Assembly: GCA_034231615.1 (NCBI GenBank)
Contig: CM067304.1
Coordinates: forward strand, 15,527,444-15,591,443
DNA: 64,000 nucleotides
Reading direction: 5' to 3'
DNA from: Meghimatium bilineatum
Lineage: Eukaryota; Mollusca; Gastropoda; Stylommatophora; Philomycidae
This document shows positions 25,161-42,479 of this stretch, piece after piece (within the stretch, counting starts at the first letter, position 1; each line of letters opens with the position of its first letter). The notes under the pieces were generated by a model, which saw only the letters and a program-made list of their open reading frames with translations, searched no databases and was not told the DNA's origin. The position numbers and the translations under genes were made by a program.

Positions 25161-25171
25161 GTAGGGAACGT

Positions 25172-26045
25172 TTATTTAATTGTGCCAGACAAATTGTCTT
25201 TTATCTTTAGCCAATTGTGTTGCGTTTGTTGTTGTGATGCCATGTTGTTGTAGTAGTTCTCCGATATCCATCTTCCTCTTGCTCTGTAACCAGAAATTCT
25301 TTTGTTGTATGCTATAGATGGTAGGCGATTAGGTTCCATTCTCATAAGGTGGACAAACCATCTAATCTGTTGTCTTTCTATGTATTTGATGCATGGAATA
25401 GTTCCTATACAATTTCTGATGTCTTCATTTCTTATTCGGTCTGTTCTACTGACTCCAATGATCCTCCTTAGGCATCTCATTTCACAGGTTGCAATCTTTC
25501 ACTCCTGTGTTTTGGACATTTACCATTTTTGACCACTTTCAGATTTATGTATGGGTGTTTGAGCAGTAGCATCAGTTGATATGACACAGCATTAGCTTTT
25601 TGGCATTGCTTATCAATTTCTTTATCTAGTTTGCCATCTTCAGTGAACATGCTTCCCAGGTATTTAAATTTGTGTACTTTGATATTGTCTTAGTTGATTA
25701 GGATGTTAACCCCTTAGACTTTGATATTGTCTTAGTTGATTTGGATGTTAACCCCTTAGACAGATATTGTCTTAGTTGATTAGGATGTTAACCCCTTAGA
25801 CTTTGATATTGTCTTAGTTGATTAGGATGTTAACCCCTTAGACTTTGATATTGTCTTAGTTGATTAGGATGTTAACCCCTTAGCTGTGAAGGTATTCTTA
25901 AGGATATGATGAAAAGCCACTGCCATTTCTGGAGATGCTCCTCTTTTAGCTTCCCAGGAAATAATCTGTCTGGATGCTTATAATAAAGTTTGCAGTTTGC
26001 TGGATGTCCCATTTATTCCTTTATGTTTCTGAGCCATACAACACA
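25172..26045 (-). mobile_element. LINE RT thumb and C-terminus containing an internal array
   Basis: The minus strand reads (26045 to 25172) a short RT piece, then VHKFKYLGSMFTEDGKLDKE + IDKQCQKANAVSYQLM, then MRCLRRIIGVSRTDRIRNED...RWFVHLMRMEPNRLPS. This is the standard order YLGS...DG..EI, CLR.I..., H..RM...RLP. A 43-bp minisatellite lies between 25676 and 25886. Confidence 0.8.
25676..25886. repeat. 43-bp minisatellite inside a LINE
   Basis: Five units of TTGATATTGTCTTAGTTGAT + TAGGATGTTAACCCCTTAGAC. One unit lacks the ACTTTG. The array lies within the LINE, just upstream of its YLGS motif in minus-strand sense. Confidence 0.9.
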
Positions 26046-26054
26046 GGAAAAACT

Positions 26055-26310
26055 TTAAACTTATTGGTTTGAACATGTAACTAGATACAACTCACTGTCT
26101 AAAATTATTTTGCAAGGAACAGTCGAGGGTGGATGAAGAAGAGAATAAAAAATCATGGATTGATAACTTCAAGGAATGGTATGAATATGATTTTTATACA
26201 CTCCTCTGAATGACTGAGGATAGAGATGCTTGAAGCACTTTTTGAGCTGATATCTCCAATGTCGCACCCCTACAACCCTAATGGTTTATGGGTCTTATTA
26301 TTATTACAGT
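26055..26310 (+). mobile_element. LINE 3' end (ILQGTVE...CADISNVAPLQP type)
   Basis: Decayed reading F(E)HVTRYNSLSKIILQGTVE, WIDNFKEW, then ...DISNVAPLQP and ATGGTTTATGGGTCTTATTA. Sister copies lie at 41100-41395, 57070-57505 and 63735-63895. Confidence 0.75.
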
Positions 26311-26644
26311 GAAATCCCATTATAACTTCCATATTATATAACAATAAATCCCATTTATATATGTTTGTAATAACAGAAATTCGCTATATACAGTACAAAC
26401 AATATAGAATAAATATAAATGGGGATTTTGAAAAGTGTTGTTAAATAGGGAAATTTGTTATAAAAGAATGTGCTATAGAGGGATTCCATTGTATAACATA
26501 GGCAGGAAAATCTTGAAAAATATATATACTGGTATGTTCCTAGAACAATTGGGGAGGATTTGTAGTCTGTTAATGTGTGCTCTTTTTTTCCCACTACCTT
26601 TAAACTCCTACTGATTAGCAGGTTGAAGACCAGATAGAAATGTG

Positions 26645-26780
26645 TTGTGTTTTATATAATAATTATAATAATAACAACTCTAATATAAATAATAATAACG
26701 TAAGTTTAATAATAATAAAAATAAAAATTATATAAAATATAATTATAAAAATAATAATAATAAAAAATAATAATAACTTA
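26645..26780. repeat. AT-rich AATAAT low-complexity tract
   Basis: Irregular AATAATAAT/ATAATTAT repeats. They lie between two inverted LINE 3' ends, consistent with the A/T-rich tails of those copies. Confidence 0.85.
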
Positions 26781-26784
26781 TAAC

Positions 26785-27020
26785 CAGTAATGGTTGTAGG
26801 TGTGCCACACTGGAAACAGCACAAAAAGTCAACTACACTTTGTGTTCAGCTATTTGGACGATGGTATAAAAATCATGGCTGGACTATTCCTTGATGCCGT
26901 CAATCCAAAATTTTCTCCCATCACCTCTTCTCCTTCAACCTTCAATTGGTTTTGCAAAATAGCTTAGTAAAGCAAATTGCGTCATGTTACATGTCCAAAC
27001 AAAATCAAAATAAGTTTATG
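26785..27020 (-). mobile_element. LINE 3' end, inverted relative to 26055-26310
   Basis: The minus strand carries the same HVT(R)...CKTN.RL.V-like and WIDGIKE.S-type stretches and the VAHLQP-like end. With 26055-26310 it forms a tail-to-tail pair around the AAT tract. Confidence 0.7.
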
Positions 27021-27024
27021 CCGT

Positions 27025-27245
27025 TTCACTACTGATACATGGTTATTAGCTTCGCTGCAATATCTGCACCTTTTAACCTGATATATTTGACTTCCGTGTG
27101 ACTTTTGAGTCACATTGTTCTATAAGATGGGACAGTTAACTTCACCCTCATACCTACTTATTAATTTATTAAAAGATGTATGGCAGATCACATTGTTGCT
27201 ATCCTATGCTCCCCTTTCAGGACCTGATAACACACACTTCTCTGC
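27025..27245 (+). mobile_element. SINE-B copy (5'-head missing)
   Basis: Core TTTTAACCTGATATATTTGA, then ACTTTTGAGTCACATTGTTC and TATCCTATGCTCCCCTTTCA. Confidence 0.7.
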
Positions 27246-27269
27246 CACAGGAAGTGATTGCACACAAAT

Positions 27270-27644
27270 ATGATCCTAAAATATGGACACAACTGTATAT
27301 GTATAGGCAGATGGATCTCTAAGAAATGGAGGAGGAGGCATCTTTATAAGATATAACAACAGAAAGTGACCCAGTAAAGCATTCCCAACAGGAAAGATAT
27401 GCTCAACTTCAGAACAGAAGCAGAGGTACTCCTGCATGCACTGAGAGCTCTCGCTACCACAGATCATTCAACATCATCCAATGTAGTAATATTCACAGAC
27501 TCAGATCCTTATTGGAAGCATTGTAAAGCAACAAAAATGAAAACACAATAAGCAATATTAGACTAGAACTGGTAAATATAAAAATAGGCTAAAATATCAC
27601 TCTTCAATGGCTATCTGCCCATTGTGGTATCACTGGAAATGTTT

Positions 27645-27697
<53 letters not shown>

Positions 27698-28172
27698 AAA
27701 GAGAGCTGATACCCTGGCAAAAGCAGGATGTAAAATGGAACAATTCAGCTATCCTCTGTCATACAGTGAAGCCAAAACACTAATCTGCAGCCATTATACA
27801 TCACAGTGGAAGAAAGATATGGATATTGATTCAAAACTAGAACCAATAAACCAATATCATAGGCAACAACAGATCATCATCTTTCGATTTAGAACTAACC
27901 ACTGCAGGCTACAGAGCCACCTGTACCGAAACAGGGTGGCCCACACAAATGAATATCCATGCGGAACAGGCATACACACCCCAGAAGACATACTCCAAGA
28001 CTGTCCAGAATATAAAGAACTGCGAGGCAAGACATGGCCACAGTGGACTGAACTGAGGAAAACCTTAAGGGCAGTCACTCTGACCTGGAGAAGACTAGGA
28101 GTTTCGTCCTGGCAACTGGCCTGATGATCTAGCGAGACTAAAAGATTCCTGAATGCAGAAGAAGAAGAACAC
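27270..28172 (+). mobile_element. LINE-2 RNase H and C-terminus with 3' tail
   Basis: Frame-shifted RNase H (YADGSL..GGGGIFIRYN; NFRTEAEVLLHALRALATTD; NVVIFTDS) is followed by a (GA)n at 27649-27695. An open frame then reads LKRADTLAKAGCKMEQFSYP, IFRFRTNHCRLQSHLYRNRV and CGTGIHTPEDILQDCPEYKE (CxxG...H-type zinc region). The 3' end is CTGAATGCAGAAGAAGAAGA. The repeating Arg-Glu stretch comes only from the GA microsatellite. Sits in SLC22 intron 8. Confidence 0.85.
27649..27695. repeat. (GA)n microsatellite
   Basis: About 23 GA units inside the LINE-2 coding region. Confidence 0.95.
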
Positions 28173-28281
28173 ATAATTAAATCTCTGCTCTCAAATTCTA
28201 AAAATATCATAACTTTGACTAATGAAATGACTCACTAGTTAATGACCGTGACCGATCAAGTGACTACTAGAAATGACTTAC

Positions 28282-28370
28282 CATTGGTGTACTCATTGAC
28301 AATACCAGCAGCCACACACAGCACAGCAGCCGCAATAAAACAGGCCAGGAGTGGCTTCTTCCTGCCAAAT
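28282..28370 (-). CDS. SLC22 transporter exon 8
   Basis: 89 nt: one base completes Arg391, then FGRKKPLLACFIAAAVLCVA + AGIVNEYTN (392-420), then the first base of Ala421. Contains the second MFS-type motif (RFGRKKP) and TM9. The acceptor is GTCTGCCATCAG; the donor is AATG/GTAAGT. Confidence 0.95.
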
Positions 28371-28494
28371 CTGATGGCAGACAAAAACATTAGTTGTGAG
28401 AAATCAGAATACCTAGCTCAGACTGTCTATGAGTTATGTACCGACATTATCGTACTCTGGGTAAACTCGAAGGTGCCTAGTCTTCTTATTCAGG

Positions 28495-28740
28495 CACTCT
28501 CAAATTTTTGCAGATTACCAGAATGTAGTCCAGAGATGGCATTAAGCTGTGTCATGGTATACCAATGTTCTGCAATATTTGCGCTTATTGGCCTGATCCA
28601 ACATCCAACTTCATCATAGCCTTTGAGTCACATTGACCCTGTGGGATGGGACAGCCAACTTCACCCCCAAAACATCATTAGTATGACATGCCTGGCAGGT
28701 AGCACTATCACTATTTTTAGCTCCTTTTTGCTTCGAGCCA
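28495..28740 (+). mobile_element. SINE-B copy
   Basis: Reads AGATTACCAGAATGTAGTCC, then GGCCTGATCCAACATCCAAC, CATTAGTATGACATGCCTGG and CACTGCAACCATGG. Confidence 0.75.
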
Positions 28741-28961
28741 CTGCAACCATGGCAAAAGGTCTTTAGCCACCCCCAGCAAAATTGAAGGGTATATGTACTA
28801 ATGGTTCCTGTAGCTTACTGGCTGGACATACTCCTCAATCTATTTTGCAGGTGTCCATTTCTACAAATTCTGATCTGCGCAACCCTTTTTGGATTCACAG
28901 GCCAAATTCTGCACTTTTAATGTGCAAGCTTTTATTTATAATTCTTGGAAGTTTTTATCAA
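28741..28961. other. Unclassified intron sequence
   Basis: No coding similarity. May be a LINE scrap (WRISTNSDLRNPFWIHRP on the plus strand is not a motif I recognise). Confidence 0.3.
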
Positions 28962-29366
28962 TAGTACTTACGTAGAACACAAGTTTTGTTGTAGTTTCAT
29001 GATGACTAACAGACTATTGAACTATATGGTATAGGTACAAAAACATACAAATAACAATATAAAAGACATTTTCAACCTTCAGGTCTTTTTTCAAGAACAT
29101 TCAAAACAGTATAAAATTAGTTAAAAACAATGGTACCATCACAAGCACTAGACAGACACACATGCTTTTGTGGTAGTACCATTGTTTGTACTGTTCTTAT
29201 TGTTTGTTCACTGTTTGTTTTGTATTTTCATGAAAAATACCTTAAGTTTGAACCATTGAAAATGTCCTTGTATATTGTTATCTGTATGTTTTCGTACATA
29301 TACAACATGGTGCATGTTAGTTATTGTAAAACTACGACAGAACTAGTGTAGTACTAAGTACTATTG
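28962..29366. mobile_element. Foldback element: two family F copies head to head
   Basis: The left arm (28962-29135) and the reverse complement of the right arm (29180-29366) share ATAGTACTTA.GTA, GAAAACATACA.ATAACAATAT and ATTTTCAA.CTT.AGGT, ending AAACAATGGTACCATCACAA versus AAACAATGGTACTACCACAA. The arms flank a roughly 20-bp loop around 29140-29165. Each arm carries the family F hairpin AAGACCTGAAGGTTGAAA or a diverged form. No protein is coded. Confidence 0.75.
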
Positions 29367-29475
29367 TTATTAAGTTTTACAGAAGTCTTACCTATTATTG
29401 ATTGTAAAAGTTTCTAAAAGATGTCAGCACAGCTACCAGCATATGACATAGATTTTCTTTACATTAATAGATTTG

Positions 29476-29655
29476 CATACCATCAGACAGCATACCACAG
29501 TAAGCTATGCTATACAGTGACGGCAGACCTAGAGGGCGACCACGAAAACAATGGTCCACTGAAATAAAAGAGGCAGCAAATTCCACAATATACTCAGCAC
29601 ACAAGAGGGCTGTCTCCAAAAAAAAACTTTCCTTGATGCTGAAAGGCAACAAAGG
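29476..29655 (+). mobile_element. LINE C-terminal fragment
   Basis: Reads MLYSDGRPRGRPRKQWSTEI + KEAANSTIYSAHKRAVS, the (G)RPR.RW..EIK.......HK.AVSR.L pattern shared with 10540-10690 and 40220-40415. Confidence 0.75.
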
Positions 29656-29751
29656 GTTTAGCGGATAGATAGATTTGCCTGCATTTTGCAAGTTTTTACT
29701 GTCAAGCATCAAAGTTGGTGGTGAGATGCATAGCTTTCTGTTTATGCCTAC

Positions 29752-29886
29752 CTTTTCATGATGGGTAGTGTCATAGCATACGCCGATGTCTCCACAGCTC
29801 CTCCTATAAAAAATATGAGATATCTGCTGCCTGTAAAACTGGTCATTTGGAATGTCAGGCCATAATAACAGGTAGAGATGGTAAAC
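29752..29886 (-). CDS. SLC22 transporter exon 7
   Basis: 135 nt: one base completes Trp346, then FTISTCYYGLTFQMTSFTGS + RYLIFFIGGAVETSAYAMTL + PIMK (347-390), then two bases of Arg391. TM7-TM8 with the YYGL pattern typical of SLC22 TM7. The acceptor is CCTTCTATTCAG; the donor is AAAAG/GTAGGC. Confidence 0.95.
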
Positions 29887-29914
29887 CTGAATAGAAGGGG
29901 ATGCAGAGATGAAT

Positions 29915-30200
29915 TGACTAGTCAGTTTACAGTCAACTTAACAAACTTAATATGTACATCTAACTTGAGTAATTTATCTGCAGCTAACTTGACTAATTTA
30001 TCTACAGCTAACTTGACTAATATATCTACAGCTAACTCGACTAATATATCTACAGCTAACTCGACTAATTTATCTGCAGCTAACTTGACTAATTTATCTA
30101 CAGCTAACTTGACTAATATATCTATATCTAACTTGACTAATATATCTACAGCTAACTTGACTAATTTATCTGCAGCTAACTTGATTATTTTATCTTATTT
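29915..30200. repeat. 24-bp minisatellite in intron 6
   Basis: About 11 units of AACTTGACTAATTTATCTAC + AGCT, starting 29 bp upstream of the exon 7 acceptor in gene sense. On the plus strand it is open in one frame (NLTNLSTA repeats), which is an artefact of the 24-bp period. Confidence 0.9.
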
Positions 30201-30291
30201 TCACATATTTCTCCAGAGGAGTGCTAAGGGATAGGCAACATTGAGCTAGATTGACTAATATGTATTTGTTATTGGAAAGCTAGGGACCCAC

Positions 30292-30440
30292 CAAATGTAA
30301 AAAAGGATGAGTGACCTCAGTCGGATGTCAGATGTACGGAATATATTTGTCAAGTTGTAGTGTTGTCTACCATGATTGCCAGAACTTTCCGCTTGCATAT
30401 CTGTCTTTAGAGTCTCCCAGATGTCTGTTGGGAAGGGTAA
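30292..30440 (-). CDS. SLC22 transporter exon 6
   Basis: 149 nt: LPFPTDIWETLKTDMQAESS + GNHGRQHYNLTNIFRTSDIR + LRSLILFYI (297-345) plus two bases of Trp346. Encodes the end of the large cytosolic TM6-TM7 loop, with the L(F/I)RT...R..(T/S)L pattern, and the start of TM7. The acceptor is TATTTCTCAG; the donor is TTTG/GTGGGT. Confidence 0.93.
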
Positions 30441-30577
30441 CTGAGAAATATATATATGTCAAATAATAACACATCAGAGAGATAGCTGAGTGCATATAAA
30501 ATGTTTCATTCTAAAAGTAGAATAATATGCCCCACACTGAATATTAGACACATATCATGTTTTACATTTGCATTTGT

Positions 30578-30850
30578 TCTTCTTCTTCTGAGCTCATTGT
30601 CAAAATCCTGCCGATTAGCAGGATGTAGTCTGGAGAATAGAATGTGTTGTGCCATAGTTTAAAGCTTTGCTGTGATATCTGTGCCTTTTGGCCTGAGACA
30701 TCTGATTCAGCTTGGCTCTTTGGTCACTTTGACCCTATATGGGAGGGGACAGCCAACTTCACCTCATTAACCTCCTTAGTCGTCCCTTATGACATGCATG
30801 GAAGGTAAACAATATTGCTATTCTTTGCTCCCTTTCAGGCCTTGACAATT
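30578..30850 (+). mobile_element. SINE-B copy
   Basis: TTCTTCTTCTTCTGAGCTCA start, CAGGATGTAGTCTGGAGAAT, TTTTGGCCTGAGACATCTGA, TTAGTCGTCCCTTATGACAT, CTATTCTTTGCTCCCTTTCA end. Essentially full length. Confidence 0.9.
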
Positions 30851-30934
30851 AATAATGGTTCCTTTCATCAGTTCTGTTCAATATCTCCCTGGCTATCTTT
30901 ATAATACACAATGCACACAAAATAAGGAGGCAGA

Positions 30935-31090
30935 TAATGATGAAATAATCCCTTCAGCTGTGAGCATGTAGCTCTTGACACATAATGATGATGAAATAAT
31001 CCTTTCAGCTGTTCACAGGTAACTCTTGACACATGATGATGATGAAATAATACCTTTAGCTGTGAGCAGGTAGCTCTTGACAGCCCATAG
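30935..31090. repeat. About 54-bp tandem repeat, three copies
   Basis: GATGATGAAATAATCC.TTCAGCTG followed by GTAGCTCTTGACA, three times with mismatches. Confidence 0.85.
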
Positions 31091-31415
31091 CCTTTCTGAC
31101 AAAAGCACAGGTTCTTCTCAGTTGTGTAAGTTAGACAGCACCCAGACCCATGTAAAGATCTCAAAGGCATGGATTTGTAATGGATGCATGTTTAGCCCCT
31201 GAAAGAATGCATTCCAGTGTGCCAGTATCTCAGGATTATCACATCCTGCCAGATGCACAGAGTACACATCTGGACTAACTATATCATTATTCTTGTGCCA
31301 GATTTTTTGGCCCATCAGCAATGATGGCGCATCTAGCATTCCCTATTACCTAGAGGTCTGCCATAAATGTGCAATGTTCGCTGCTCTGCATCTTTTTGTC
31401 ATCCATGAGAATTAT
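31091..31415 (-). other. Unidentified fragment with a 73-codon open frame
   Basis: The minus-strand frame at 31339-31118 reads MLDAPSLLMGQKIWHKNNDI... and ...FEIFTWVWVLSNLHN. I do not recognise a domain. The lower AT content than the flanking intron hints at an old coding relic, possibly of a transposon. Confidence 0.3.
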
Positions 31416-31417
31416 TT

Positions 31418-32213
31418 GATGGTTGGTTGGTTGCTGATCCAGCAGTCCATGGGCTCATGCCCTATGACCTAATGTCATTAAAATGGCATTATATTGCTGG
31501 GAAGTCTGTGGATTTTCTGCCCACCCTGGGCCAGAGAATAACTATCACACCACCAAGAAGGTAGGTTTCAACCTATGTACTTCTGCTCAAGACAGATGTG
31601 TTGGACCATTGGTGCAACTAAAACTGCGACACAGCGCATTTCCATTCTTGGACTACATCCTGCTGGAAATCTAATAGGACTATGGTCATGCTACAAGAGA
31701 GATCCAGTGGAAGTTTGAGAATAAACGCTGAAGAAGAAGTAACCTATGCACTGCCCCACACCACTGCAGCTAAGACTGTGCTCATTCCCCGCCACCAATT
31801 GACTACTGGTTATGCCGAACTTCTCTATTGCTCCAGACATGCAACCAAATGTTCAAGTCAAAAGGATTGTCACGTCCTGAGTCACTGTGCCTCTTTGATG
31901 GGCCTCAGCCATAGTAAAAAATAGTGCTGTCAGTTTCCTCCTCCCATGTGCTGCGCAGTACATCTCTAGCTCCCTCCCAACCACAGAGGGTGCATACATA
32001 TATACAAATAAAAAAGCATGAAACACATTACAACAACAAAATAAAAGCATGAGAAGCATAATTGTATAGATGACATGCCATGAAGCTTCTATAAGAAGAT
32101 AACCTCAATATAACGGCATGTCATCTACTAAGGTTTTCTGTTGCATGGGTGGTTTGTCTAGTGGACCATTGGTGAGACCCACAGACTCAACCACTGGCAT
32201 GAATTATTTGATA
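31418..32213. mobile_element. Element D copy with nested SINE-A
   Basis: Starts GGTTGGTTGGTTGCTGATCC, ends CCATTGGTGAGACCCACAGA. Near the end is a hairpin with 12-bp arms AGATGACATGCC and GGCATGTCATCT (about 32066-32128). A SINE-A at 31580-31740 interrupts it. Read on the other strand it would end in a (CAAC)n-type tail. No protein motif seen. Other copies: 43988-44605 and 46921-47535. Confidence 0.85.
31580..31740 (-). mobile_element. SINE-A nested in element D
   Basis: Reads GATGTGTTGGACCATTGGTG ... GAATAAACGCTGAAGAAGAAG. AACCTATGTACT before it and AACCTATGCACT after it look like a target-site duplication with one mismatch. Confidence 0.85.
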
Positions 32214-32279
32214 GAAGACAAAAGTAAGAAATTGAGACAAGAAGTGACAATGATTTTGTCCACAGTTGACAGGTTGTCA

Positions 32280-33391
32280 ACTGTATCTATATTTGTATCT
32301 ATATTTGCTTCATAGACTACAGCAAGGCCTTTGACAGAGTCCAACATGAAAAATTAATCAAATGTCTTCAAGAAATAGGCATAGATGGAAAAGACATCAG
32401 GCTGATTAGAAATATATATTGGGAACAAACTGCATCAATAAGGTGTGAAAACAGCTACTCACCGTACATAGAAATAAGAAGAGGGGTAAGACAAGGATGC
32501 ATTTTATCACCAAGCCTATTTAATATCTACACAGAGAATATCTTTAAAAATATAGAAGAAATACCAGGACTCAAGATCAATGGGAAAATAATAAACAACA
32601 TTAGATATGCAGATGACACTGTTCTTTTAGCAGAAAGTGAACATGAACTACAAAGACTAATAGATCAAGTCAATAAATCAAGTAATGAATATGGACTGGA
32701 TATAAACATTCAAAAAACAAAAACCATGATAATCAGCAAAAACACAGAAGAACAGGAGGTAAACATAAACATACAGGGAGAGAAACTACAACAAGTAAAA
32801 CAGTATCAATATCTTGGACACATAGTCACAAATGATGGCAGATGTGAAACAGAAGTTAAAAGGAGAATAGGAATGGCTAAAAGTACCTTCAATGACATGA
32901 GGAAATTATTAATATCTAAACAAATTACAAACAAGTTAAAAATGAGAATTATAAAATGTTACATCTATTCCATATTAATGTATGGCTCAGAAACATGGAC
33001 ACTAAATAAACAATTAGAAGACAAAATTGATGCCTTTGAGATGTGGGTATATAGAAGAATAGGGAGAACATCATGGAAAGAGAAGAAAACAAATAAAGAG
33101 GTGCTAAAAACACTTAATATGAAGAAAGAACTACTAAGAGAAATAAAGATCAGGCAAATAAAATACTTTGGACACATTAAAAGACATGACACCCTATTGA
33201 AGACCTTACTTGAGGGTAAAGTCAAAGGGAAGCGAGCAAGAGGTAGGCAGAGATACAAGTGGGAGAGTAACATTACACGATGGACAGGTTACAGTCTAGC
33301 AGAGTGCACCACCAAGACAAGAGACAGGAGATGTTGGAGATACGTTGCAGCCAACCTTCGTTGCGGAGACGGCACTTGATGATGATGATGA
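32280..33391 (+). mobile_element. LINE-1 (RTE-like) 5'-truncated insertion, RT frame open
   Basis: One uninterrupted frame of about 360 codons runs from the RT palm to the stop at 33377-33379. Motifs in order: FIDYSKAFDRVQHEKLIKCL (motif A), RRGVRQGCILSPSLFNIYTE (motif B), INNIRYADDTVLLAESEHEL (YADD motif C), KTKTMIISK, QYLGHIVTNDGRCETEV, YGSETWTLNK, FEMWVYRRIGRTSWKEKKTN, IKYFGHIKRHDT and GKRARGRQRYKWESNI. It ends in (TGA)n. TGACAGGTTGTCA at 32267-32279 and 33392-33404 is a 13-bp target-site duplication. Endonuclease and N-terminal RT are missing. A 12-bp duplication (TGTATCTATATT) lies at its 5' edge. Confidence 0.95.
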
Positions 33392-33480
33392 TGACAGGTT
33401 GTCAGTCATCTTCAAGGAAAGTTGGAAGATAGTCTATCTCCTATGACATGCATGAAGAGAAGACAGTGGCCCTAATCTTT

Positions 33481-33832
33481 GCACCAACACTTGACTGTAT
33501 CAACCTTGTTAATTCTACATCTAATTGTACCAACCTTGTTAATCCTACACTTGACTGTACCAACCTTGTTAATCCTACACTTGACTGTACCAACCTTGTT
33601 AATTCTACATCTAATTGTACCAACCTTGTTAATCCTACACTTAACTGTACCAACTTTGTTAATTCTACATCTAATTGTACCAAACTTGTTAATCTTATAC
33701 TTAACTGTACCAAACTTGTTAATCCTACACTAACTGTACCAACTTTGTTAATTCTACATCTAATTGTACCAACCTTGTTAATCCTACACTTAACTGTACC
33801 AACCTTGTTAATCCTACAGATTCTATGTACCA
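33481..33832. repeat. 30-bp minisatellite containing the exon 5 / intron 5 junction
   Basis: About 11.5 units. In gene sense each reads AGGATTAACAAG (the last 12 exonic bases) then GTTGGTACAGT.AAGTGT. The first unit overlaps the real end of exon 5. One unit is 29 bp and shifts the frame. Both strands are open for about 150 codons because of the period. Confidence 0.95.
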
Positions 33833-33894
33833 AGGTTTCAGCTCTCTCTACCTTCCATTTCATTATGAGCCAGCGAAGAGATTCTGGAATCACC
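33804..33894 (-). CDS. SLC22 transporter exon 5
   Basis: 91 nt: one base completes Trp266, then VIPESLRWLIMKWKVERAET + LVHRICRINK (267-296). The PES.RWL motif follows TM6. The acceptor is TTATTTGTCTAG. The donor AACAAG/GTTGGT is weak, and is copied in each unit of the adjoining minisatellite. The frame stays open through the next two units, so use of later donors would add 10 residues each (VGTVKCRINK, VGTIRCRINK). The boundary chosen gives the family-standard loop and fits exon 6 phase. Confidence 0.9.
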
Positions 33895-33954
33895 CTAGAC
33901 AAATAAAAACATCTGGATCATTCCAAGACTTCAATTTCATATAGTATATATCAA

Positions 33955-34075
33955 TTGACATATTCTTTCCAGAATGTTGTCTTTGTCGTGGATAATCTGA
34001 ACGCATCTCTGTCCCCTGCTAGCAGGCATTGCATTGGCCAGAGACATGTGACTTCATATAGTACATATGATATAT
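33955..34075 (-). mobile_element. LINE-1 3' end fragment
   Basis: The minus strand carries ACAACATTCTGGAAAGAATA then TGTCAATTGATATA, the FWKEYV end, and upstream GTCTCTGGCCAATGCAATGC. Confidence 0.8.
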
Positions 34076-34079
34076 TCCT

Positions 34080-34245
34080 CTTCTGTATTCATTCTCAAAC
34101 TCCTGCAGACTAACAGGATGAATTCCAGAGAATGGAATTTGTTGTCATGTTTGGTAGCTTGGCTGAAATAGTTGTACCTTTCAACCTGACCCATCTGATT
34201 TCAGTATGGACATACATAACTTTGACCATCATATGTCCATATGTT
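34080..34245 (+). mobile_element. SINE-B fragment
   Basis: CTTCTGTATTCATTCTCAAA start, TTTCAACCTGACCCATCTGA core, lost after the GACCATCATATGTCC part. Confidence 0.75.
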
Positions 34246-34299
34246 ACTGAAATATTAAACATTTGTGAATCTATGAGTTCATGTGATATCATCATTATC

Positions 34300-34680
34300 A
34301 GGAGCTATGCTGGCTGGCGCAGGCAATCATGGCTCTCCACAGCTCTCTGTTTTCAGTATTATGTATCAAGATCTTTGTTGTTTCCTTGCTGTATCAGATT
34401 GTCAAACTGTCTAATATTTTCTGCTTCTTATTTCTGTTGAACTTCTTCCATTTGCTCTAATTGTTTAACTAAATATTTGAATTGATGGACCTGTTTTAAT
34501 ACTATATCATTCAGTTTGGTCTTGCAAGGTGTGATATTTTGTTTCTTTGAAAGAACCATTACTTCTGTTTTCTTTATATTTAGAAAGAGACCTTTCTCTT
34601 TACTTTTTGTGACTACTACATTAATTAAACTTTGAAGGTTGTCCTCAATTCCAGAAAATCGTCACGATAAAGGCATATCA
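34300..34680 (-). mobile_element. LINE RT thumb fragment
   Basis: The minus strand reads NIKKTEVMVLSKKQNITPCK + TKLNDIVLKQVHQFKYLV-like, the KTKVM..S.....I......I.....F.YLG pattern, then Q...EEVQQK. Near-identical start (GGCAATCATGGCTCTCCACA) to the fragment at 63430. Confidence 0.75.
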
Positions 34681-34689
34681 TGATATATT

Positions 34690-35105
34690 CTACTGTGTTC
34701 ATTCTCAAACTCTTGCAGATTAGCAGGATGCAGTTTACAGCTCTGCTTCGATATCTGTGCTTTTTGGCACGACACATTCAACTTCAGCAGAGTTTCTGGT
34801 TCACTTTGACTCTATATCTTCTTCTTCTTCATCGTTCATTCTCAAACTCCCGCTGGATCTCCTTTGTAACAAGACCATTGTCCTACTAGATTTCTAGCAG
34901 GATGTAGTCCAGAGAATGGAAATGCATTGTGTCGCCGTTTTATTTGTGCCAATGGCCCGACACATCCATCTTTGATGTGTGACTATATGACACAGGACAG
35001 CCAACTCCACCCCATAACCTCCTTAGTCGCCTTCTACAACGTGCATGGAAGATAAACAGTGTTACCATTATTTGCTCCTCTTTCAGGTCCTGACAACACA
35101 TGGGC
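34690..35105 (+). mobile_element. SINE-B interrupted by SINE-A
   Basis: SINE-B parts at 34690-34817 (CTCTTGCAGATTAGCAGGAT) and 34972-35105 (CCTCCTTAGTCGCCTTCTAC ... GCTCCTCTTTCAGGTCCTGA) surround a complete SINE-A. GACTCTATAT before and GACTATATG after suggest the target duplication. Confidence 0.85.
34818..34971 (+). mobile_element. SINE-A nested in SINE-B
   Basis: CTTCTTCTTCATCGTTCATT start, GCAGGATGTAGTCCAGAGAA, TGTGTCGCCGTTTTATTTGT, GGCCCGACACATCCATCTTT end. Confidence 0.9.
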
Positions 35106-35289
35106 ATTTGGAATTATGATTCTGCATGTCAGTTGACATTTTGAACTTTTTTTCTGGCATATTTTGTTATAGATCATTGAATATTTCTTTCTTTTGGTAT
35201 ATTGTCTTTTCCCAGGTGAATGATGGTTGATAGTATCCACACTTGCCATTAAGCGAACGGATGGGAGATTCATTTGTCACTCCAAAGCC
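35106..35289. other. Unclassified intron sequence
   Basis: AT-rich, nothing recognised. Confidence 0.3.
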
Positions 35290-36535
35290 AGAAATGATAC
35301 CTTGTTTGCATTCAGTCCATGTTTGTTCAAGGTTATCTTGATGCTAGGGGTGCAAAGGGAACACATTGCTCTTGGCAGACCCAGGGTTAGCAGATAACCA
35401 AGATCCCAAAAAGTGCCTCCTCGTGGCGCACCCTGGTAACAGAAATACAGCAGCTCATGCTGATTCTGGCTAAACATTTTGGGGATCGTGTCCGTGAATT
35501 TGGAGGTAACAGATGAAAAGAGATCTGACTGCAAAAAGACAGGCAATATCTCTGACACCTCTGTGCCAATACATGCAGCAACACTGTTGACACACAGTGA
35601 AGCTAGTAAGTTCGGTAGAAGCATTGGAGGGGCGGCCAATGTAGTCGATATGAAGCAGGCTGATGTCTCTTTTTCTTATTCTTCGTTCATTCACAATCTC
35701 CCGCTGGATCTCCCTTACATCGGGACCGTGGTCCTACTAGATTTCCAGCAGGATTTAGTCCAGAGAATGGAAATGCATTGTGTCACCGTTTTATTTGCAC
35801 CAGTGGCCCGACACATCCATCTTCGACGGAGCTGATGTCTCAAAAAAAATAAAAGCACAATAAGTACACTAAGAAATATGCACAGCACTAAAGGGCAGCG
35901 TCAAGTGCAAAGAGAATGGAAAACGGCTCGATAAAATAGGAACTAAAGCGTTGTTTGCTCGAGACAAGCTTCAAGTTAGCAGTGATTCCAGCCTGCACCC
36001 AACTCTAATGTCGAGTTTTTCCTATACCAGAAGCAAGCTCGTGGAGAGAAAATGTTCGGTACCCGATGGGCACAGGCATAGCAGTCCAAGGTGACAGGCA
36101 CTGTTTAGCTCTGGAACAAAACGCAAGTCCCTAGCACTCCTAAATATGTGTACAGACTCAGACTTGGACGAGGGACTCACGACACTGGCAAGCAATGCTT
36201 CTGCTAAGAAGGCGAACGAGCCCAAGCCGAACTCTTCTGTCACGTTCTTCCTAAACCAGAACCAGACTTGAGGATGAGAAAAGGCTCAGTACCCGATGAC
36301 ACAATACGCCTAATTACACGTAGCAAGTTCACTGGCTGTGGAATGCCTTGTGCAAGACAGACAGGAAGGACAAACCGTTTCAGCATAGAGTCAGTACACA
36401 CTCGCTGCCTGGCGACAGATAGGAAGGCTGTCAAAGGCTAGGGTAGCACACCGGAATTGTCAAGGCATGCCAAAATCGGATGTACTAGGCCTACAAGGCG
36501 TATAACGGTGGCACAACGTAAACACGCTGCCGGAA
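35290..36535 (-). mobile_element. Element E copy with nested SINE-A
   Basis: Reverse-complement sibling of 47820-49050 and 54480-55780. Shared landmarks: GTGCAAAGGGAACACATTGC at one end, GTTTACGTTGTGCCACCGTT then GGCCTAGTACATCCGATTTT (the SINE core) at the other. Internally there are about 100-bp units with CGGGTACTGAACC and AGAGTTGGACC-type phrases. GC-richer than its surroundings. No ORF with a known domain. Confidence 0.75.
35670..35830 (+). mobile_element. SINE-A nested in element E
   Basis: CTTCGTTCATTCACAATCTC start, GGACCGTGGTCCTACTAGAT palindrome, CCCGACACATCCATCTTCGA end. GCTGATGTCTC at 35659-35669 and 35831-35841 is the target-site duplication. Confidence 0.92.
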
Positions 36536-36847
36536 AACAATGGAGTGAACACACACAAAAAATCTTTATGCTTTTTATCCGGTTTTCTTGGTCAACCTTT
36601 GGCTTTATGCCTGGATACTCTTTTGTTATATGCTCTTATTGATATTTGATTTGGCTTCTTTCTCATAAGGTGACCGAACACAATTTTACCTGCTGTCTTA
36701 TAACAGGTGATATAACTACTATTTTCCTAATTTCTTAATTTATCTGGTTTAGCACTATTGCAACTTTTCTCCAATTACCGGTACTTTTATTTCTTATAAA
36801 ATAAATAAAAAATGTAATCACTCTATTGACAGATCAGAATAGTACCT
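36536..36847 (-). mobile_element. Possible LINE scrap
   Basis: 36560-36720 on the minus strand has AGACAGCAGGTAAAATTGTG and a GHLMRKK-like reading typical of LINE C-termini, but it is short and decayed. Confidence 0.35.
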
Positions 36848-37130
36848 TCATTGTCTTCATAATAACACATCATTTGTCTTCATAATAACAAATCAGTTGT
36901 CTTCATAATAACACATGATTTGTTTTCATAAATGACACATTATGTTTTCATAATGACACATGATTTGTTTTCATAATGACACATTATGTTTTCATAATGA
37001 CACATTATGTTTTCATAATGACACATTATGTTTTCATAATGACACATGATTTGTTTTCATAATGACACATTATGTTTTCATAATGATGCATCATTAACTT
37101 CATAATAGTATATCATTTGTCTTCATAATG
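36848..37130. repeat. 21-bp minisatellite (TTTTCATAATGACACATTATG)
   Basis: About 12 units of TTCATAATGACACATTATGT, with ATGATTTG variants and degenerate edges. Confidence 0.9.
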
Positions 37131-38290
37131 ACCAACCAGTTGAGACTAAAAACTGTACGACAACTTGAAAAAAACCTTAGAGGATCAAGAAATACTGTAC
37201 ACAATGTTGAGGACCTCGACTACCCCTTCGTGGGATGGGGGGGGGGGAGTTTTAAGAAAAAGGTCTTCCAAGCGAAAAATCACTGTGTGGGTGGGGCACT
37301 GTATTCTGCGTGGTCAGTTTGCCGACCTTTGTGAGAAATGAAATTCTCAGTAGATGTCTTGCTCATACATTGAGGTTTTCCTCTTGTGAAAACCTCACAC
37401 ATCCTTCATCTGTACAATGAAGTTTCCCTTTGTGGTGAAACATTCAGAGAATCCGGTATTGCATATCACACTAGAAGTTGGATGAGATCCAACCTGTTCA
37501 TGGTCCTAATTCCCGATGTACACATGAGGCCTCAGCTATGAAAAGGTGGCACATGGGATGTGGTGAAAAGCAACTCTCTGCAGAGCATGACAATTTCCTG
37601 GGAGAGCCCAGAATCCGGCAAACATGTTGGCCCTGCATAATTGTAGAGCCCCCTTGGATGGAGGGAAATGCATAGCTGGCTGCTCGACCCATACCAGTGA
37701 CCATGATCCAGAGCTGGGTTGCTATGGATACCTACAGGAAGGGTTGCTTAGCAGGGGAGCTAAAGCCAATGCTCTGCATATCATGGAAAGATAGAAAAGT
37801 CACAACACCCATAGAATTTACCCCCTGCCTCTGAGTAAGAGACTTCTCACAGCAATGCACACTGCTAGAAGTTGGTCTCCTTGGTATGGAATAAAACTAA
37901 AAAAAACCATCCCATTGTACATAGGAAGTTCCTCTTCATCATTCTTCAGTCAGTTATCAGGTTACAGCACCAATAGCTTCAAAGGACTGTGTAATTCACT
38001 TCAGGCCATCCATGGAACCCAACAGGTTTGGGAGTAGAGCCATCTCAGTAGAACATATTTTCTCCCTCTCTTCTTGGTAGAGTTGACATGCATCAAGAAT
38101 GAACATAGGAAGTAAGAGTTAAGTGTTCATAATTCCTAGGGATTAAAACAACAATAACCTCTTCAGATGCCTCTTACCACATGCATGACAGGTAAACAGT
38201 GATGCTATTCTTTGATCATATTTCAAGCCCTGGTAACACATGGGTGCTACATATTATAAATGCAATGTTTCTATCAGTTGTCGCTTCACG
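37131..38290. other. Intron 4 sequence with a possible DNA-transposon relic
   Basis: The plus strand near 37718-37830 reads AMDTYRKGCLAGELKPMLCI + SWKDRKVTTPIEFTP. This loosely resembles the KGE...L...WKDKR.V..LST stretch of piggyBac-type transposases, but with no end sequences or catalytic residues seen. A G run lies at 37238-37248. The rest is unassigned. Confidence 0.3.
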
Positions 38291-38294
38291 TTCT

Positions 38295-38575
38295 TCTTCT
38301 TCTTTCTTTTTTTCTTCTGCGTTCGTTCTCAAACTCCTGCAAATCAGCAGGATGTAGTCCGGAGAACGGAATGCATTGTGTCATGGTTTACAGCAAAGCT
38401 GCGATATCTGCGCCTTTCAGCCTGACACATCCGACTTCAGCATGCCTTTGGGTCACGGACCCTATATGGGATAGCAAACTCCTCCTTAGTCGCCTCGTAC
38501 GAAATGCATGGAAGGTACAGTGTTGCTATTCTTTGCTCCCCTTTCAGGCCCCTGACAACACACAGGTCTTCTTCT
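38295..38575 (+). mobile_element. SINE-B copy, near complete
   Basis: CTTCTGCGTTCGTTCTCAAA start after a long CTT/T tract, CAGCAGGATGTAGTCCGGAG, TTTCAGCCTGACACATCCGA, CTCCTTAGTCGCCTCGTACG, ATTCTTTGCTCCCCTTTCAG. Confidence 0.93.
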
Positions 38576-39060
38576 GCGTTCAGCTTCTGCAGTCATGTTA
38601 GATTGTCAGACCTGACATCAGGACTTCACTGTCTTCTCCAGATTAGAACAGATACCCCATAGCTTTAACCTCAAATCTGTATCCTTTGCTTTTTTGTATG
38701 TTTGGCAGTCTTTGTATGTTATGTATTTTACAGGTTTGGATTCCGGATGCACATGGTCATTTATCTGTGTATAAGATCCTCAGTTGATAAAAGCATAGCC
38801 CTATTACTTGTTGCTGCAGATTATAAATCTATATAGACTATGTCTTCTTCTTCTTCTGCATTCAGCAATCTGTGGTCATGCTATACCGTCAGGCCTGTTG
38901 TCAAGACGAAGTCAACTGTCTTCTCCAGGTCAGAGCAGCTGCCCCATAGCTTTAGCCTCAAGTCTGTATCCTCTGGCCAGGTCTGCTGTCTCTGCTCTTT
39001 GTATGTTGGGCAGTCCTGAAGTATGTGTTCCTATGTCTATATGACTGTTATTGCTGCACA
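38576..39060 (-). mobile_element. Two tandem LINE-2 3' ends
   Basis: 38576-38740 and 38836-39035 each begin, on the plus strand, with CTTCTTCTGC(A/G)TTCAGC, then an ACTGTCTTCTCCAG block and ATCCTC/TTGCTTTT...TGTTGGGCAGTC. In reverse they match the LINE-2 C-terminus at 28000-28160 (ILQDCP...LEKT...). Both tails are GCAGAAGAAG. Confidence 0.8.
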
Positions 39061-39084
39061 CACTACCACTCTAGTACTACTTAC

Positions 39085-39281
39085 CATGGATAGAAGACAG
39101 TCAACACTCCTGGTAGACTGACAGCAATTTGGAGATAACGCCAGTCCCTGATAGCCCAGGCCAGTCCAGCTAACAACATGATGCTTGCCCCAAAAAAGCA
39201 TTCTGTGACAGCCCCAGCAAATGGTCGATACTTAGGGATGAAAAGTTCCATTATCAGAGTATACGCTGAGGTCTGCAAACC
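39085..39281 (-). CDS. SLC22 transporter exon 4
   Basis: 197 nt: GLQTSAYTLIMELFIPKYRP + FAGAVTECFFGASIMLLAGL + AWAIRDWRYLQIAVSLPGVL + TVFYP (201-265) plus two bases of Trp266. TM4-TM6 with the family's E..(V/I)PK.R......F and RDWR.LQ......P motifs. The acceptor is TCTTTTTCCAG; the donor is CATG/GTAAGT. Confidence 0.96.
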
Positions 39282-39489
39282 CTGGAAAAAGAAAATAAGA
39301 TAACTCAATGTCTTTTTTCTCATGAGCAATGATTATATATCGTTCTTAGCTGTAAGCCTAGTCATCCTTTTTCATTATCAGATAGGCCTAGGTCTATGAC
39401 TTACTATTTGTTAAGGTCATTGGTAAAATTATCTCTTCAGACATAGGCCTATCACCAGATGTTGTCTCTAGGTATCTTTTCTAGGTAGT

Positions 39490-39526
39490 CTTCTCAAGGC
39501 TTAGCATTCTTTAGGTCCAGTATTCT
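39490..39526. repeat. Left edge of a degenerate AGGTCCAGTCTTCTCT array
   Basis: CTTTAGGTCCAGTATTCT matches the array at 39682-39925; the SINE-A between them carries the duplication. Confidence 0.7.
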
Positions 39527-39681
39527 TCTTCTTCAGCGTTCATTCTCAAACACCCCCTAGGACTCTCCTGTAGCAGGACAATGATCTCACTCGATTTAGC
39601 AGGATGTAGTCCAGAGAATGGAAGTGCATTGTGTTGCTGTTTTATTTGTGCCAATGGCATGACACATCAGTCTTTGGCAGT
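39527..39681 (+). mobile_element. SINE-A inserted in a minisatellite
   Basis: TCTTCTTCAGCGTTCATTCT start, GCAGGATGTAGTCCAGAGAA, TGGCATGACACATCAGTCTT end. GTCCAGTATTCT at 39515-39526 and 39682-39693 is the target-site duplication. Confidence 0.92.
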
Positions 39682-39925
39682 GTCCAGTATTCTCTGTCAT
39701 CTTCTCTAGGTCCAGTCTTCTTAGGTCCAGTCTTCTCTAAGTCAACTTCTTGAGGTCCAGTATCTCTAGGTCCTGTCTTCTCTAGGTTGTCTTTTCTAGG
39801 TCCAGTATTCTTTATGTACAGACTTCTCTAGGTTGCCTTTTCTAGGTCCAGTGTTCTTTATGTACAAACTTCTCTAGGCCCAGTCCTCTCTAGATCCAAA
39901 ATTCTCTAGGTCCAGTCTTCTACCA
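39682..39925. repeat. Degenerate 22-bp minisatellite
   Basis: Units of TCTAGGTCCAGTCTTCTCTA with variable length. Confidence 0.85.
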
Positions 39926-40199
39926 CTGACCATTTGTTCGGGATATTGGTCATGTTATCTCTTCAGACTTGTCATGAGACATCTTCTCTAGATCATGTCT
40001 TGTCTGGTCTGGATATCAACACTCTATGTCTTAGCCTACATGTCTGCTATTTCATATAGGTGTCTGTCCATAAGTGTCAACTAGTACGGATTATCTGTAT
40101 TGATACAGATTTCCAGCCCTAATTTTTTAAATTTTTTAAAAAATCTTTAAAAAACTTTAATTACTGCCTGTTTTCAGTGAAGAGGTGCAGGAAGGTTTT
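39926..40199. other. Unclassified intron 3 sequence
   Basis: AT-rich. Includes an AAAAATTT low-complexity stretch near 40120-40160. Confidence 0.4.
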
Positions 40200-40219
40200 C
40201 TATCTATCTATCTATCTAT
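40200..40219. repeat. (TCTA)n microsatellite
   Basis: Five TATC units. Confidence 0.9.
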
Positions 40220-40415
40220 ACGCTGTGGCCCTTGTTTGCCTTGCGGCGTCAGGGGTGGAAGAGTTCTCTAGAGGTGGCCTTCTTGTGTGCTGTTTGTAAG
40301 CTGATTCCTGTGGCTTTGATTTCTGTGATCCATCTTTTACATGTCCTGCCTCTGGCTTATAATCGTTATGTCTATGTGACATGGCCATTTGTGGCATGCT
40401 ATCTATTGGTAGCCT
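40220..40415 (-). mobile_element. LINE C-terminal fragment
   Basis: The minus strand contains the decayed HRHNDYKPEAGHVKDGSQKS + KPQESAYKQHTRRPPLEN, parallel to the RGRPRKQW.TEIK...AHK.AVS.E block at 29530. Begins at the microsatellite, a plausible tail. Confidence 0.6.
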
Positions 40416-40444
40416 GGAAGCGTGTGAAAACCAGGTTTTCTATG

Positions 40445-40600
40445 GGCTGTGGACATGTACAGGAAGGATTTATATTGTACCCTCGAAAGAATAAATCCTG
40501 TCTCAACCATGGAATGAACCCGGGACCTCAAGAATCTAAGAACGGCGTTCTAACCAAACGACCATGCACTCCACTAAGTCATAGTGGATTTCATCTTAAA
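40445..40600 (-). mobile_element. tRNA-like SINE
   Basis: The minus strand reads TGGTCGTTTGGTTAGAACGC (A-box-like) and GAGGTCCCGGGTTCATTCCA (B box GGTTCATTCC), spaced as in a tRNA, followed by GAGACAGGATTTATTCTTTC. Flanks do not fold into a complete tRNA cloverleaf that I can support, so I call it a SINE rather than a tRNA gene. Confidence 0.65.
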
Positions 40601-40719
40601 TTTTAAAGAAATTATGAAGAAATATTTTAAATAAATATTGAAAACCAAAACAAAAAAACATTTAAAAAAAATTCATTTGGTCAATATTTCAGTCAATATT
40701 AGTAATGCTGATGTTTTAT

Positions 40720-40865
40720 CTCGCACACGTGTTGGAGTGTATTGATGTATTGGCCACAAAAAAAGGTCTTTTGGTGCTAAATACAGACATTATTGAAATA
40801 TGGAAATAAATTGTTAAAAGTATGGATTTATGAAAAAATAAGTTGACAGCTGCTATATCTGTCTT
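40720..40865. repeat. Dispersed repeat, sister of 19140-19310
   Basis: GGTGCTAAATACAGACATTA then GGAAATAAATTGTTAAAAGT and AATAAGTTGACAGCT. Confidence 0.75.
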
Positions 40866-40904
40866 AAAAATATTTTAACTGCATTAAGGACTTTCTACAC
40901 AACT

Positions 40905-41095
40905 AATTTCTGTCAGGAATAACTATAGGTCTCTACATGGACCTACCTATAGGGCTTATGGTATATATGTTCCTACCTGCAGGAACTGTTGACCTACCTA
41001 TAGGGCTTAATGTAGATAATGTTCCTACCTGCAGGAACTGTTGGCCTACCTATGAAGCCTACTGTAGATATGTTCTCTGTAGGAACTAACTGTAC
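40905..41095. repeat. Minisatellite of exon 3 donor-like units
   Basis: Three to four units of about 60 bp. In gene sense each has TTCCTGCAG/GTAGGAACAT, then TAAGCCCTATAGGTAGGTC. The unit at 41060-41090 (GAACATATCTACAGTAGGCTTC) nearly equals the sequence right after the exon 3 donor (AACATATCCACAGTAGGTCTTC). A LINE insertion separates array and exon. Confidence 0.8.
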
Positions 41096-41099
41096 ACAG

Positions 41100-41395
41100 A
41101 GTCGCATATTAAAGTAATAGTAATTAAACCTATAACACGTCACGTTAGTAGGGTGCCACACTAGAGACATCAGTACAAAACACCCTCCAAACATTTCTAT
41201 CCTCAGCCATTTAGAGGTGTGTAGATAACTCATATCAAACCATTCCTTTATGTTATCAATCCAGAATTTTCTTTTGCCGCCTCTTCTCCTTCTAGCCTTG
41301 ACTGTTCCTTGCAAAATAATTTTTGAAAGTGAATCGCGTCTTGTTACATGTCCAAAATAAACTAGTTTATGTGATTTCATCACTTCCAAAAGTGG
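41100..41395 (-). mobile_element. LINE C-terminus (downstream half of an interrupted copy)
   Basis: The minus strand reads KSHKLVYFGHVTRRDSLSKI + ILQGTVKARRRRGGKRKFWI + DNIKEWFDM. The upstream half of the same copy is at 41641-41935. SINE-C sits between. Confidence 0.85.
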
Positions 41396-41420
41396 TTCTT
41401 GATAACCTGCAAGTTTGTTT

Positions 41421-41640
41421 ATCTACTTCTTCTTCAGCGTTCGCTCTCAAATAACCACAACAAATATTTTGTGTGATTTCCGCCAGGGAGCGTGAAGTAC
41501 GTTGTGCTGCAAGTTCCACAGTAAAACTGTGATTATTTGCACCCCGGTTAGCCACCTGTGGTCAGGATGTCCGAGGTCCAGCACATCCGTTTTCGTCATT
41601 CCTTTATTTCGGGTTTGGTCCCTAGTTTATCTACTGTCAA
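41421..41640 (+). mobile_element. SINE-C copy
   Basis: CTTCTTCAGCGTTCGCTCTC start, GTGTGATTTCCGCCAGGGAG, GTACGTTGTGCTGCAAGTTC, GTCCAGCACATCCGTTTTCG, ending near CCCTA. GTTTATCTACT before and after is the likely target-site duplication (about 41410-41420 and 41627-41637). It has the SINE core but a different head from A and B. Confidence 0.8.
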
Positions 41641-41935
41641 ATGAATATATTTCTACTTTGTTCTTTATAACTAATCCTTAACAAATGTCTGTAACACTTG
41701 TACTCAATAGCCTGAATCCTTCTTGCCGTGTCTGCTTACAGTGTCCAGCTTTCACATCCGTATAAAAGTATACTTAGCACTAGCGATCTGAATAGATTGA
41801 TCTTTACTGTCATTCTGATATTACTTTTCAAATCATATTCAACATTTCCCTGGCAGCCATTGCCCTATCAAGACTTAATTTAATCTCATTTCTCAAGTTG
41901 TCATCATCACATATTTGGGACCAGAGAAGACCTAC
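41641..41935 (-). mobile_element. LINE RT thumb (upstream half of an interrupted copy)
   Basis: The minus strand reads DDDNLRNEIKLSLDRAMAAR, LKSNIRMTVKINLFRSLVLS + ILLYGCESWTL, then IQAIEYKCYRHLLRIS. Continues into 41100-41395 once the SINE is removed. Confidence 0.8.
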
Positions 41936-41949
41936 TGTGGATATGTTAC

Positions 41950-42180
41950 CTGCATGAGAATCCCAGAAATGAAACGTAATATCACAAACATGGCATAGTT
42001 GACAGAGAAAGCTGTGACGATTCCTACAATGACAGAACTGTAGAGAGTGACCAGCATAATAGGCAGACGACCAAATCGATCAGCCAGATCGCCAAACAGC
42101 AATCCTCCCACCATCACACCGATAAAATAGATAGTTGTTGCCAGGTTGGCCAAGTACTTGTTGTCACAAACCAAATCAAA
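41950..42180 (-). CDS. SLC22 transporter exon 3
   Basis: 231 nt in phase 0, residues 124-200: FDLVCDNKYLANLATTIYFI + GVMVGGLLFGDLADRFGRLP + IMLVTLYSSVIVGIVTAFSV + NYAMFVILRFISGILMQ. Begins at the E(W/F)(D/N)LVC motif ending the extracellular loop and spans TM2-TM4, with the MFS signature GDLADRFGR. The acceptor is TAATCTTCTAG-type; the donor is ATGCAG/GTAACA. Confidence 0.97.
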
Positions 42181-42390: not shown

Positions 42391-42479
42391 ATTTTAGAGT
42401 TGACAGGGAACATTAGAGAAAAGTCACATACTAACACTGGTCAAGAATAACATTGATGTCACAAAAACCGAAACACACA

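What the first reader, a model, noticed from the sequence alone, without database searches (positions are those of the whole stretch)
33481..33894. 30-bp array copies the exon 5/intron 5 junction of SLC22 and could extend the protein in 10-residue steps
Each unit holds the last 12 exonic bases (AGGATTAACAAG) plus the donor GTTGGT. The next two units keep the frame open, so using their donors would insert VGTVKCRINK-type decapeptides into the TM6-TM7 cytosolic loop. A 29-bp unit then breaks the frame, which limits clean in-frame options to three donors.
Basis: partly seen in the sequence, partly recalled or inferred. Interest (0 to 1): 0.72.

Follow-up and report, generated by a model that had tools for sequence, protein, structure and literature searches.

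The report
Splice-donor minisatellite in an SLC22 gene
In an animal transporter gene the last stretch of one exon, together with its splice signal, has been copied again and again into the following intron; the gene still reads correctly from the first copy, and the extra splice signals look like tolerated by-products of a repeat-rich genome that might occasionally add ten amino acids.

Summary
Confirmed: the minus strand holds an 11-exon SLC22 gene (567 codons, open). The end of exon 5 and its donor are tandemly repeated into intron 5 (33818-33487, 11 units, one of 29 bp). The unit copies more exon than reported: the last 15 bases exactly, about 31 with one gap. Nine of 11 unit junctions keep GT; six share one 11-mer. 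Only D1-D3 are in frame and D3 is weak, so one realistic ladder step (D2, +VGTVKCRINK) remains; D7-D10, identical to D1, lead to an early stop. D1 gives a loop length within the paralog range, D2 does not, and D2 scores lower against all 26 SLC22 structure sequences matched. No RNA was available. Donor-spanning tandem copies occur at two other independent SLC22 junctions of this genome, with a related locus in single-copy state; one is +40 bp with an immediate stop, so selection for protein steps is not needed. A genome-wide tandem-donor scan was enriched for one donor consensus, not for a second. Best reading: tandem duplication of exon end plus donor, expanded as a minisatellite, tolerated because the first donor works. 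Known parallel: human IFI6.

The parts
16055..50285 (-). SLC22-like transporter gene, 11 exons, 567 codons
   Evidence: exon model with GT-AG introns and open frame; TIGR00898 400.6 bits; best solved structure SLC22A3, 242.3 bits
33804..33894 (-). exon 5 (91 nt), starts phase 2, ends phase 0 at AACAAG|GTTGGT
   Evidence: matches SLC22 PESxRWL...RIN region
33804..33834 (-). exonic copy of the repeat unit (CTTGGTACATAGAATCTGTAGGATTAACAAG)
   Evidence: alignment to unit with one gap, shuffle test
33487..33818 (-). 30-bp minisatellite spanning the exon 5 end and the intron 5 donor, 11 units, a-b-a-a-b-a-b-a-a-b-a order of two unit types
   Evidence: TRF, unit list
33802..33803 (-). donor D1 (AAG|GTTGGT), presumed main donor
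   Evidence: loop length and structure-match comparison
33772..33773 (-). donor D2, identical 11-mer, +30 in frame, adds VGTVKCRINK
33742..33743 (-). donor D3 (AAA|GTTGGT), +60 in frame, weak
   Evidence: U1 duplex -4.1 vs -7.9 kcal/mol for D1
33715..33743 (-). 29-bp unit that breaks the frame
33534..33624 (-). stretch from D10 to D7: four donors identical to D1 (33624, 33594, 33564, 33534), all +2 frame, stop after YPSQQTSGRL in exon 6
30292..30440 (-). exon 6 (149 nt), begins LPFPTDIWETLK, phase 0

Best explanation
A tandem duplication of the last ~30 bp of exon 5, running into intron 5, produced extra copies of the exon end and its donor. The copies then multiplied and were homogenised as an intronic minisatellite. 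Splicing mainly uses the first donor (D1), which keeps a family-typical loop length, and the rest of the array is removed with the intron. Such arrays persist because adding copies downstream of a working donor does not damage the exon. D2, identical over 11 bases and in frame, may be used at a low level and give a +10-residue form; use of D7-D10 would give a message with an early stop. Shown: the copying, frames, donor sequences, recurrence in paralogs and a related locus without the duplication. Inferred: donor choice, tolerance and low-level use of D2.
For: Unit homologous to the exon tail. Array sequence unique to the locus: 18-mer in 5 places, all here. Its core GTTGGTACARTTA is not a dispersed family: 144 places vs 181 for the reversed control. 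Same kind of event at two other independent junctions: L063, C4, 39-bp units with AAAATACAG|GTGAGG; L059 and L060, C14, 40-bp duplication of exon end plus GTGAG, single in the related L081. Junction self-similarity: 4 of 23 donors strong (score 39 or more), 0 of 23 acceptors, highest 22. PES-to-W: D1 78, D2 88; of 20 paralog frames (11 of them from one C12 cluster) 18 give 69-75, L068 gives 78, L079 has no W at that place. D1 protein scores higher than D2 on 26 of 26 SLC22 sequences: SLC22A3 242.3 vs 228.0 bits, SLC22A6 233.2 vs 228.6.
Against: No transcript was seen, so D1 use is inferred. D1 has the lowest score of this gene's 10 donors on a position matrix typed from recalled frequencies (5.9; the others 6.4-9.8), though its U1 pairing energy is mid-range; an exonic AAG|GTAGAG 48 nt upstream scores 5.4. 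D1 and D2 are identical over 11 bases, so D2 or a more downstream donor could compete well; recalled in-vitro work favours the intron-proximal of two equal donors. The donor/acceptor contrast is not significant (Fisher p 0.11 for 4 vs 0, 0.23 for 3 vs 0 independent events).
Confidence: 0.75

Rival explanations
1. Functional isoform ladder: D1, D2 and perhaps D3 are all used, making transporters whose TM6-TM7 loop is longer by 10 or 20 residues, possibly with allele-dependent array effects.
For: D2 has the same 11-base donor as D1; units 1-2 are in frame and stop-free. The second paralog array (L063) also has an in-frame, open second donor, +39, VRFDILSEYRKIQ. Loop length varies among paralogs, 69-78 residues in 19 frames, and L076 has a long open frame beyond the loop start. 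IFI6 uses repeat donors (PMC4526556, passages).
Against: D3 weak; D7-D10 frame-breaking; D2 lowers the family match. The L059/L060 duplication is +40 with an immediate stop and L063's third donor follows an in-frame TGA. No RNA.
Confidence: 0.12
2. A dispersed minisatellite family inserted here and happens to resemble the exon end.
For: Arrays on C2, C16, C20 and C25 align at 68-71% to this one; the two looked at (L047, L055) share TTGGTACA plus a few bases on one strand.
Against: Core not in excess of control (144 vs 181); the 18-mer is in no other array; the exon side is conserved SLC22 coding sequence, so the exon is the likely source.
Confidence: 0.04
3. The array marks a gained or moved intron: intron 5 sits at a position not seen in the 13 paralog loci measured, and the tandem duplication created its donor.
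For: Exon 5 here is 91 nt; with donors that I set by eye the same exon is 127 or 130 nt in L057, L058, L063, L072, L083 (L083 with a GC donor), 156 in L067 and 213-216 in L059, L060, L071, L073, L077, L078, L081. E5+E6 = 240 nt, as one uninterrupted exon of the last class allowing for 8 more loop residues.
Against: The last 300 nt of intron 5 show no likeness to two units (307 of 500 shuffles as good) or to the exon tail (118 of 500), and exon 6 starts TTACCC, not GT, as a simple duplication origin would need. No orthologue to polarise the change.
Confidence: 0.09

Closest known systems
Human IFI6 (G1P3, 6-16) minisatellite donor repeats (Turri et al. 1995, NAR 23:1854; not held; seen only as a cited title and through one sentence of PMC4526556)
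   Same: A minisatellite at an exon end offers several splice donors; in IFI6 two downstream repeat units are used as donors, giving three mRNA species (PMC4526556 passage).
   Different: IFI6 use is documented by RNA; here none is. Unit here is 30 bp with a weaker donor (IFI6 unit recalled as 12 bp), and a 29-bp unit plus four frame-breaking donors identical to D1 restrict clean choices.
Tandem alternative donors / subtle alternative splicing (recalled)
   Same: Competing nearby donors that change the protein by a few residues.
   Different: Copies arise by minisatellite amplification, 30 nt apart, eleven units.
Intron gain by tandem genomic duplication (e.g. PMC4974935, PMC3443670; search listing only)
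   Same: Tandem duplication of an exon segment that carries a splice signal.
   Different: No matching copy at the acceptor end and exon 6 does not begin with GT.

Membership tests
IFI6-type donor minisatellite | tandem array that spans an exon end and its donor | tested here: met
IFI6-type donor minisatellite | successive units carry donors that keep the frame | tested here: met
   D1-D3 in frame, D4-D11 not: met for three of 11 units only
IFI6-type donor minisatellite | transcripts use more than one unit donor | not testable with these tools
   no RNA data
SLC22 transporter family | full-length match to the family model and solved members | tested here: met
   TIGR00898 residues 24-518, 400.6 bits, 1e-119, but below its curated cut-off of 550.75; the 26 best of 45 distinct solved sequences matched are SLC22 members
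SLC22 transporter family | transport activity | not testable with these tools
   sequence only
Intron gain by tandem genomic duplication | same duplicated segment at both ends of the intron, new exon starting with GT | tested here: not met

The most novel reading that the evidence does not exclude
In this minisatellite-rich genome, exon ends with their donors are repeatedly amplified into donor ladders (three independent cases in one gene family, two of them with an in-frame, stop-free second donor), so that array-length change is a recurrent source of new protein length variants and, through out-of-frame donors, of dosage variation.
Probability: 0.12. Interest if true: 0.65.

Novelty: new member of a known kind. 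Interest (0 to 1): 0.36.

Why it matters
It is a natural set of identical competing donors, 30 nt apart, with in-frame and out-of-frame members in one intron, and with a paralog pair that shows a two-copy step beside a related locus with one copy. If transcripts show even low D2 use, it would be a ready system for measuring how position alone decides between equal donors; if not, it shows how repeat growth at an exon end is made harmless by first-donor choice.

Tried and rejected
Dispersed repeat family: rejected, although DNA search did find 68-71% similar arrays on C2, C16, C20 and C25.

Donors as hot spots of minisatellite birth, genome-wide: tandem CAGGTRAGT (period 20-50) gave 2821 places vs 1698 for the reversed pattern with near-equal single counts (20740 vs 21158), and 32 vs 17 distinct loci on contig C1 (read by me from the capped listings, hits within 2 kb merged; binomial p 0.044; the donor listing stops at 135.2 of 135.7 Mb). 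The replicate with AAGGTRAGT went the other way: 1787 vs 2430 places, 8 vs 10 loci on C1 up to 61.62 Mb; singles were not counted for that pair. So no robust enrichment; the hypothesis is dropped as unproven.

Donor-versus-acceptor asymmetry: 4 of 23 vs 0 of 23, not significant. L076 was left out of that test because no donor could be set; L057 and L058 are near-identical copies and both were counted. Weaker self-matches (p below 0.02) also occurred at donors L067 and window E2 and at acceptor window E4.

Loop length: one search's automatic endpoint was wrong for L079 (another W, 65) and missing for L068 (78); the report uses the mended count.

Intron gain by duplication: not met. L085 (C1) was fetched because its listed repeat unit looked coding: it has a pyrimidine-AG, an open frame and 50-bp units copying its end plus GTGAGT, but no Pfam match, and the frame is also open upstream of the AG, so it stays an unconfirmed candidate. 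A wider survey of myosin exons failed because no loci could be cut.

Not-in-print: I make no such claim.

Full report
Setting. The window is part of contig C7 of an unnamed 1.61-Gb, 32-contig genome. Reading the minus strand with help from uninterrupted paralog frames gave an 11-exon gene, 50285 to 16055, all introns GT-AG, with an unbroken frame of 567 codons. It is an SLC22 family transporter: TIGR00898 400.6 bits over residues 24-518, below that model's curated cut-off, Pfam Sugar_tr and MFS_1, and best solved matches SLC22A3 and SLC22A6.

The array. Exon 5 (33894-33804) ends AACAAG|GTTGGT. From its last 15 bases into intron 5 runs an array of 11 units, 30 bp each except unit 3 (29 bp). Units are of two types; the first 10 are on average 88% identical to each other (minimum 73%), while the exon tail is 74-81% identical to them. 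The exon tail aligns over 31 bases with one gap; the part beyond the exact 15 bases is itself better than chance. As the exon side is the conserved R-x-x-RIN end of the SLC22 loop, the exon is taken as the source and the array as the copy. The 18-mer that joins exon end and donor is found nowhere else in the genome, and the GTTGGTACARTTA core is not over-represented.

Donors. Nine of 11 unit junctions keep GT; six (D1, D2, D7, D8, D9, D10) share the 11-mer AAG|GTTGGTAC; D3 and D6 have A at -1; D11 is GTTGAT; D4 and D5 are dead. D1-D3 are in frame; joining at D4-D11 leads to a stop 10 codons into exon 6. By U1 pairing D1 and D2 come out at -7.9 kcal/mol (this gene's donors span -5.2 to -10.7) and D3 at -4.1. 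On a matrix typed from recalled frequencies D1 is the weakest of the 10 donors. Weaker in-frame GT sites exist inside the array too (for instance +75, matrix score 3.0), and an exonic AAG|GTAGAG (5.4) lies 48 nt upstream of D1, so 'three donors' holds only for the repeated donor.

Which donor. There is no RNA here. D1 is favoured by homology: RINK joins LPFPTDIWETLK and the stretch from PES to the W of TM7 is 78 residues. Of 20 paralog frames examined, 18 give 69-75, L068 gives 78 and L079 lacks that W; 11 of the 20 come from one cluster on C12. The D2 protein has 88 and scores lower on 26 of 26 SLC22 sequences. I take D1 as the main donor and D2 as a possible minor one.

Recurrence. Exon-5-like loci were found; 13 paralog junctions (donors set by eye) and the 10 introns of this gene were tested for likeness between each junction and its neighbouring intron. 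Strong hits: this exon 5 (48), L063 (39), L059 (58), L060 (75); no acceptor of 23 passed 22. In L063 (C4) a 39-bp array, 8.5 copies, starts in the last nine exonic bases and repeats CAG|GTGAGG-like donors; its second donor is in frame and open (VRFDILSEYRKIQ), the third follows an in-frame TGA. In L059 and L060 (C14) the last 35 exonic bases plus GTGAG are present twice, 40 bp apart (the second donor of L059 has T at -1), and reading past the first donor meets a stop at once; the related L081 has one copy. Thus an early step of such an array can be seen, and its length need not suit the frame.

How unusual. Arrays of period 9 or more cover 13.6% of the window and 9.5% of this gene's introns; TRF rows also touch both ends of exon 2. 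About one of 10 donors in an array is what this density would give. A genome-wide scan for tandem donors showed a surplus for CAGGTRAGT but a deficit for AAGGTRAGT against reversed controls, so I do not claim that donors attract arrays.

Known parallel. Human IFI6 has a minisatellite whose downstream repeat units serve as donors, giving three mRNA species (PMC4526556, passages only; the 1995 paper is not held). The present case has the anatomy but lacks the RNA evidence.

Noticed in passing
window 45387-45415 (exon 2 start, minus strand): The acceptor of exon 2 lies in a 12-bp x 2.4 repeat (ATACAGATAACAGTACAGATAACAG) that offers several AG acceptors, two of them 12 nt apart and in frame (4-residue step); exon 2's start is therefore uncertain.
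   Followed up: partly
window 33804 / 30440 (intron 5): Exon 5 is 91 nt here but 127-130 nt in five paralog loci, 156 in one and 213-216 in seven others (donors set by eye); the 36 nt LPFPTDIWETLK sit in exon 6. The intron position is unlike that of the 13 paralog loci measured.
   Followed up: partly
L063:1618-1948: Donor-spanning 39-bp array at an SLC22 paralog junction on C4, with nine GTGA-type donor-like sites from the exon end to 343 nt downstream; a stronger donor set than in the window.
   Followed up: yes
L059, L060 vs L081 (C14): 40-bp tandem duplication of exon end plus donor in two related loci, absent in a third: a visible early step.
   Followed up: yes
L085:1-301 (C1:80268560-80268860, minus): Exon-like open frame whose end plus GTGAGT is repeated every 50 bp; coding status unconfirmed.
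   Followed up: partly
window 1-64000: Very dense minisatellites (71 TRF rows with period 9 or more, 13.6% of bases), e.g. 11089-12037 (31 bp x 30.6) and 60538-61513 (32-bp units).
   Followed up: no
window 32800-33390: Reverse-transcriptase-like retroelement remnant (my reading of the sequence, untested) inside intron 5, ending in a TGATGATGATGA tail near the array.
   Followed up: no
G000 C12:21.05-21.39 Mb: Cluster of uninterrupted SLC22-like reading frames of about 500 aa, apparently intronless, plus others on C9 and C10.
   Followed up: no
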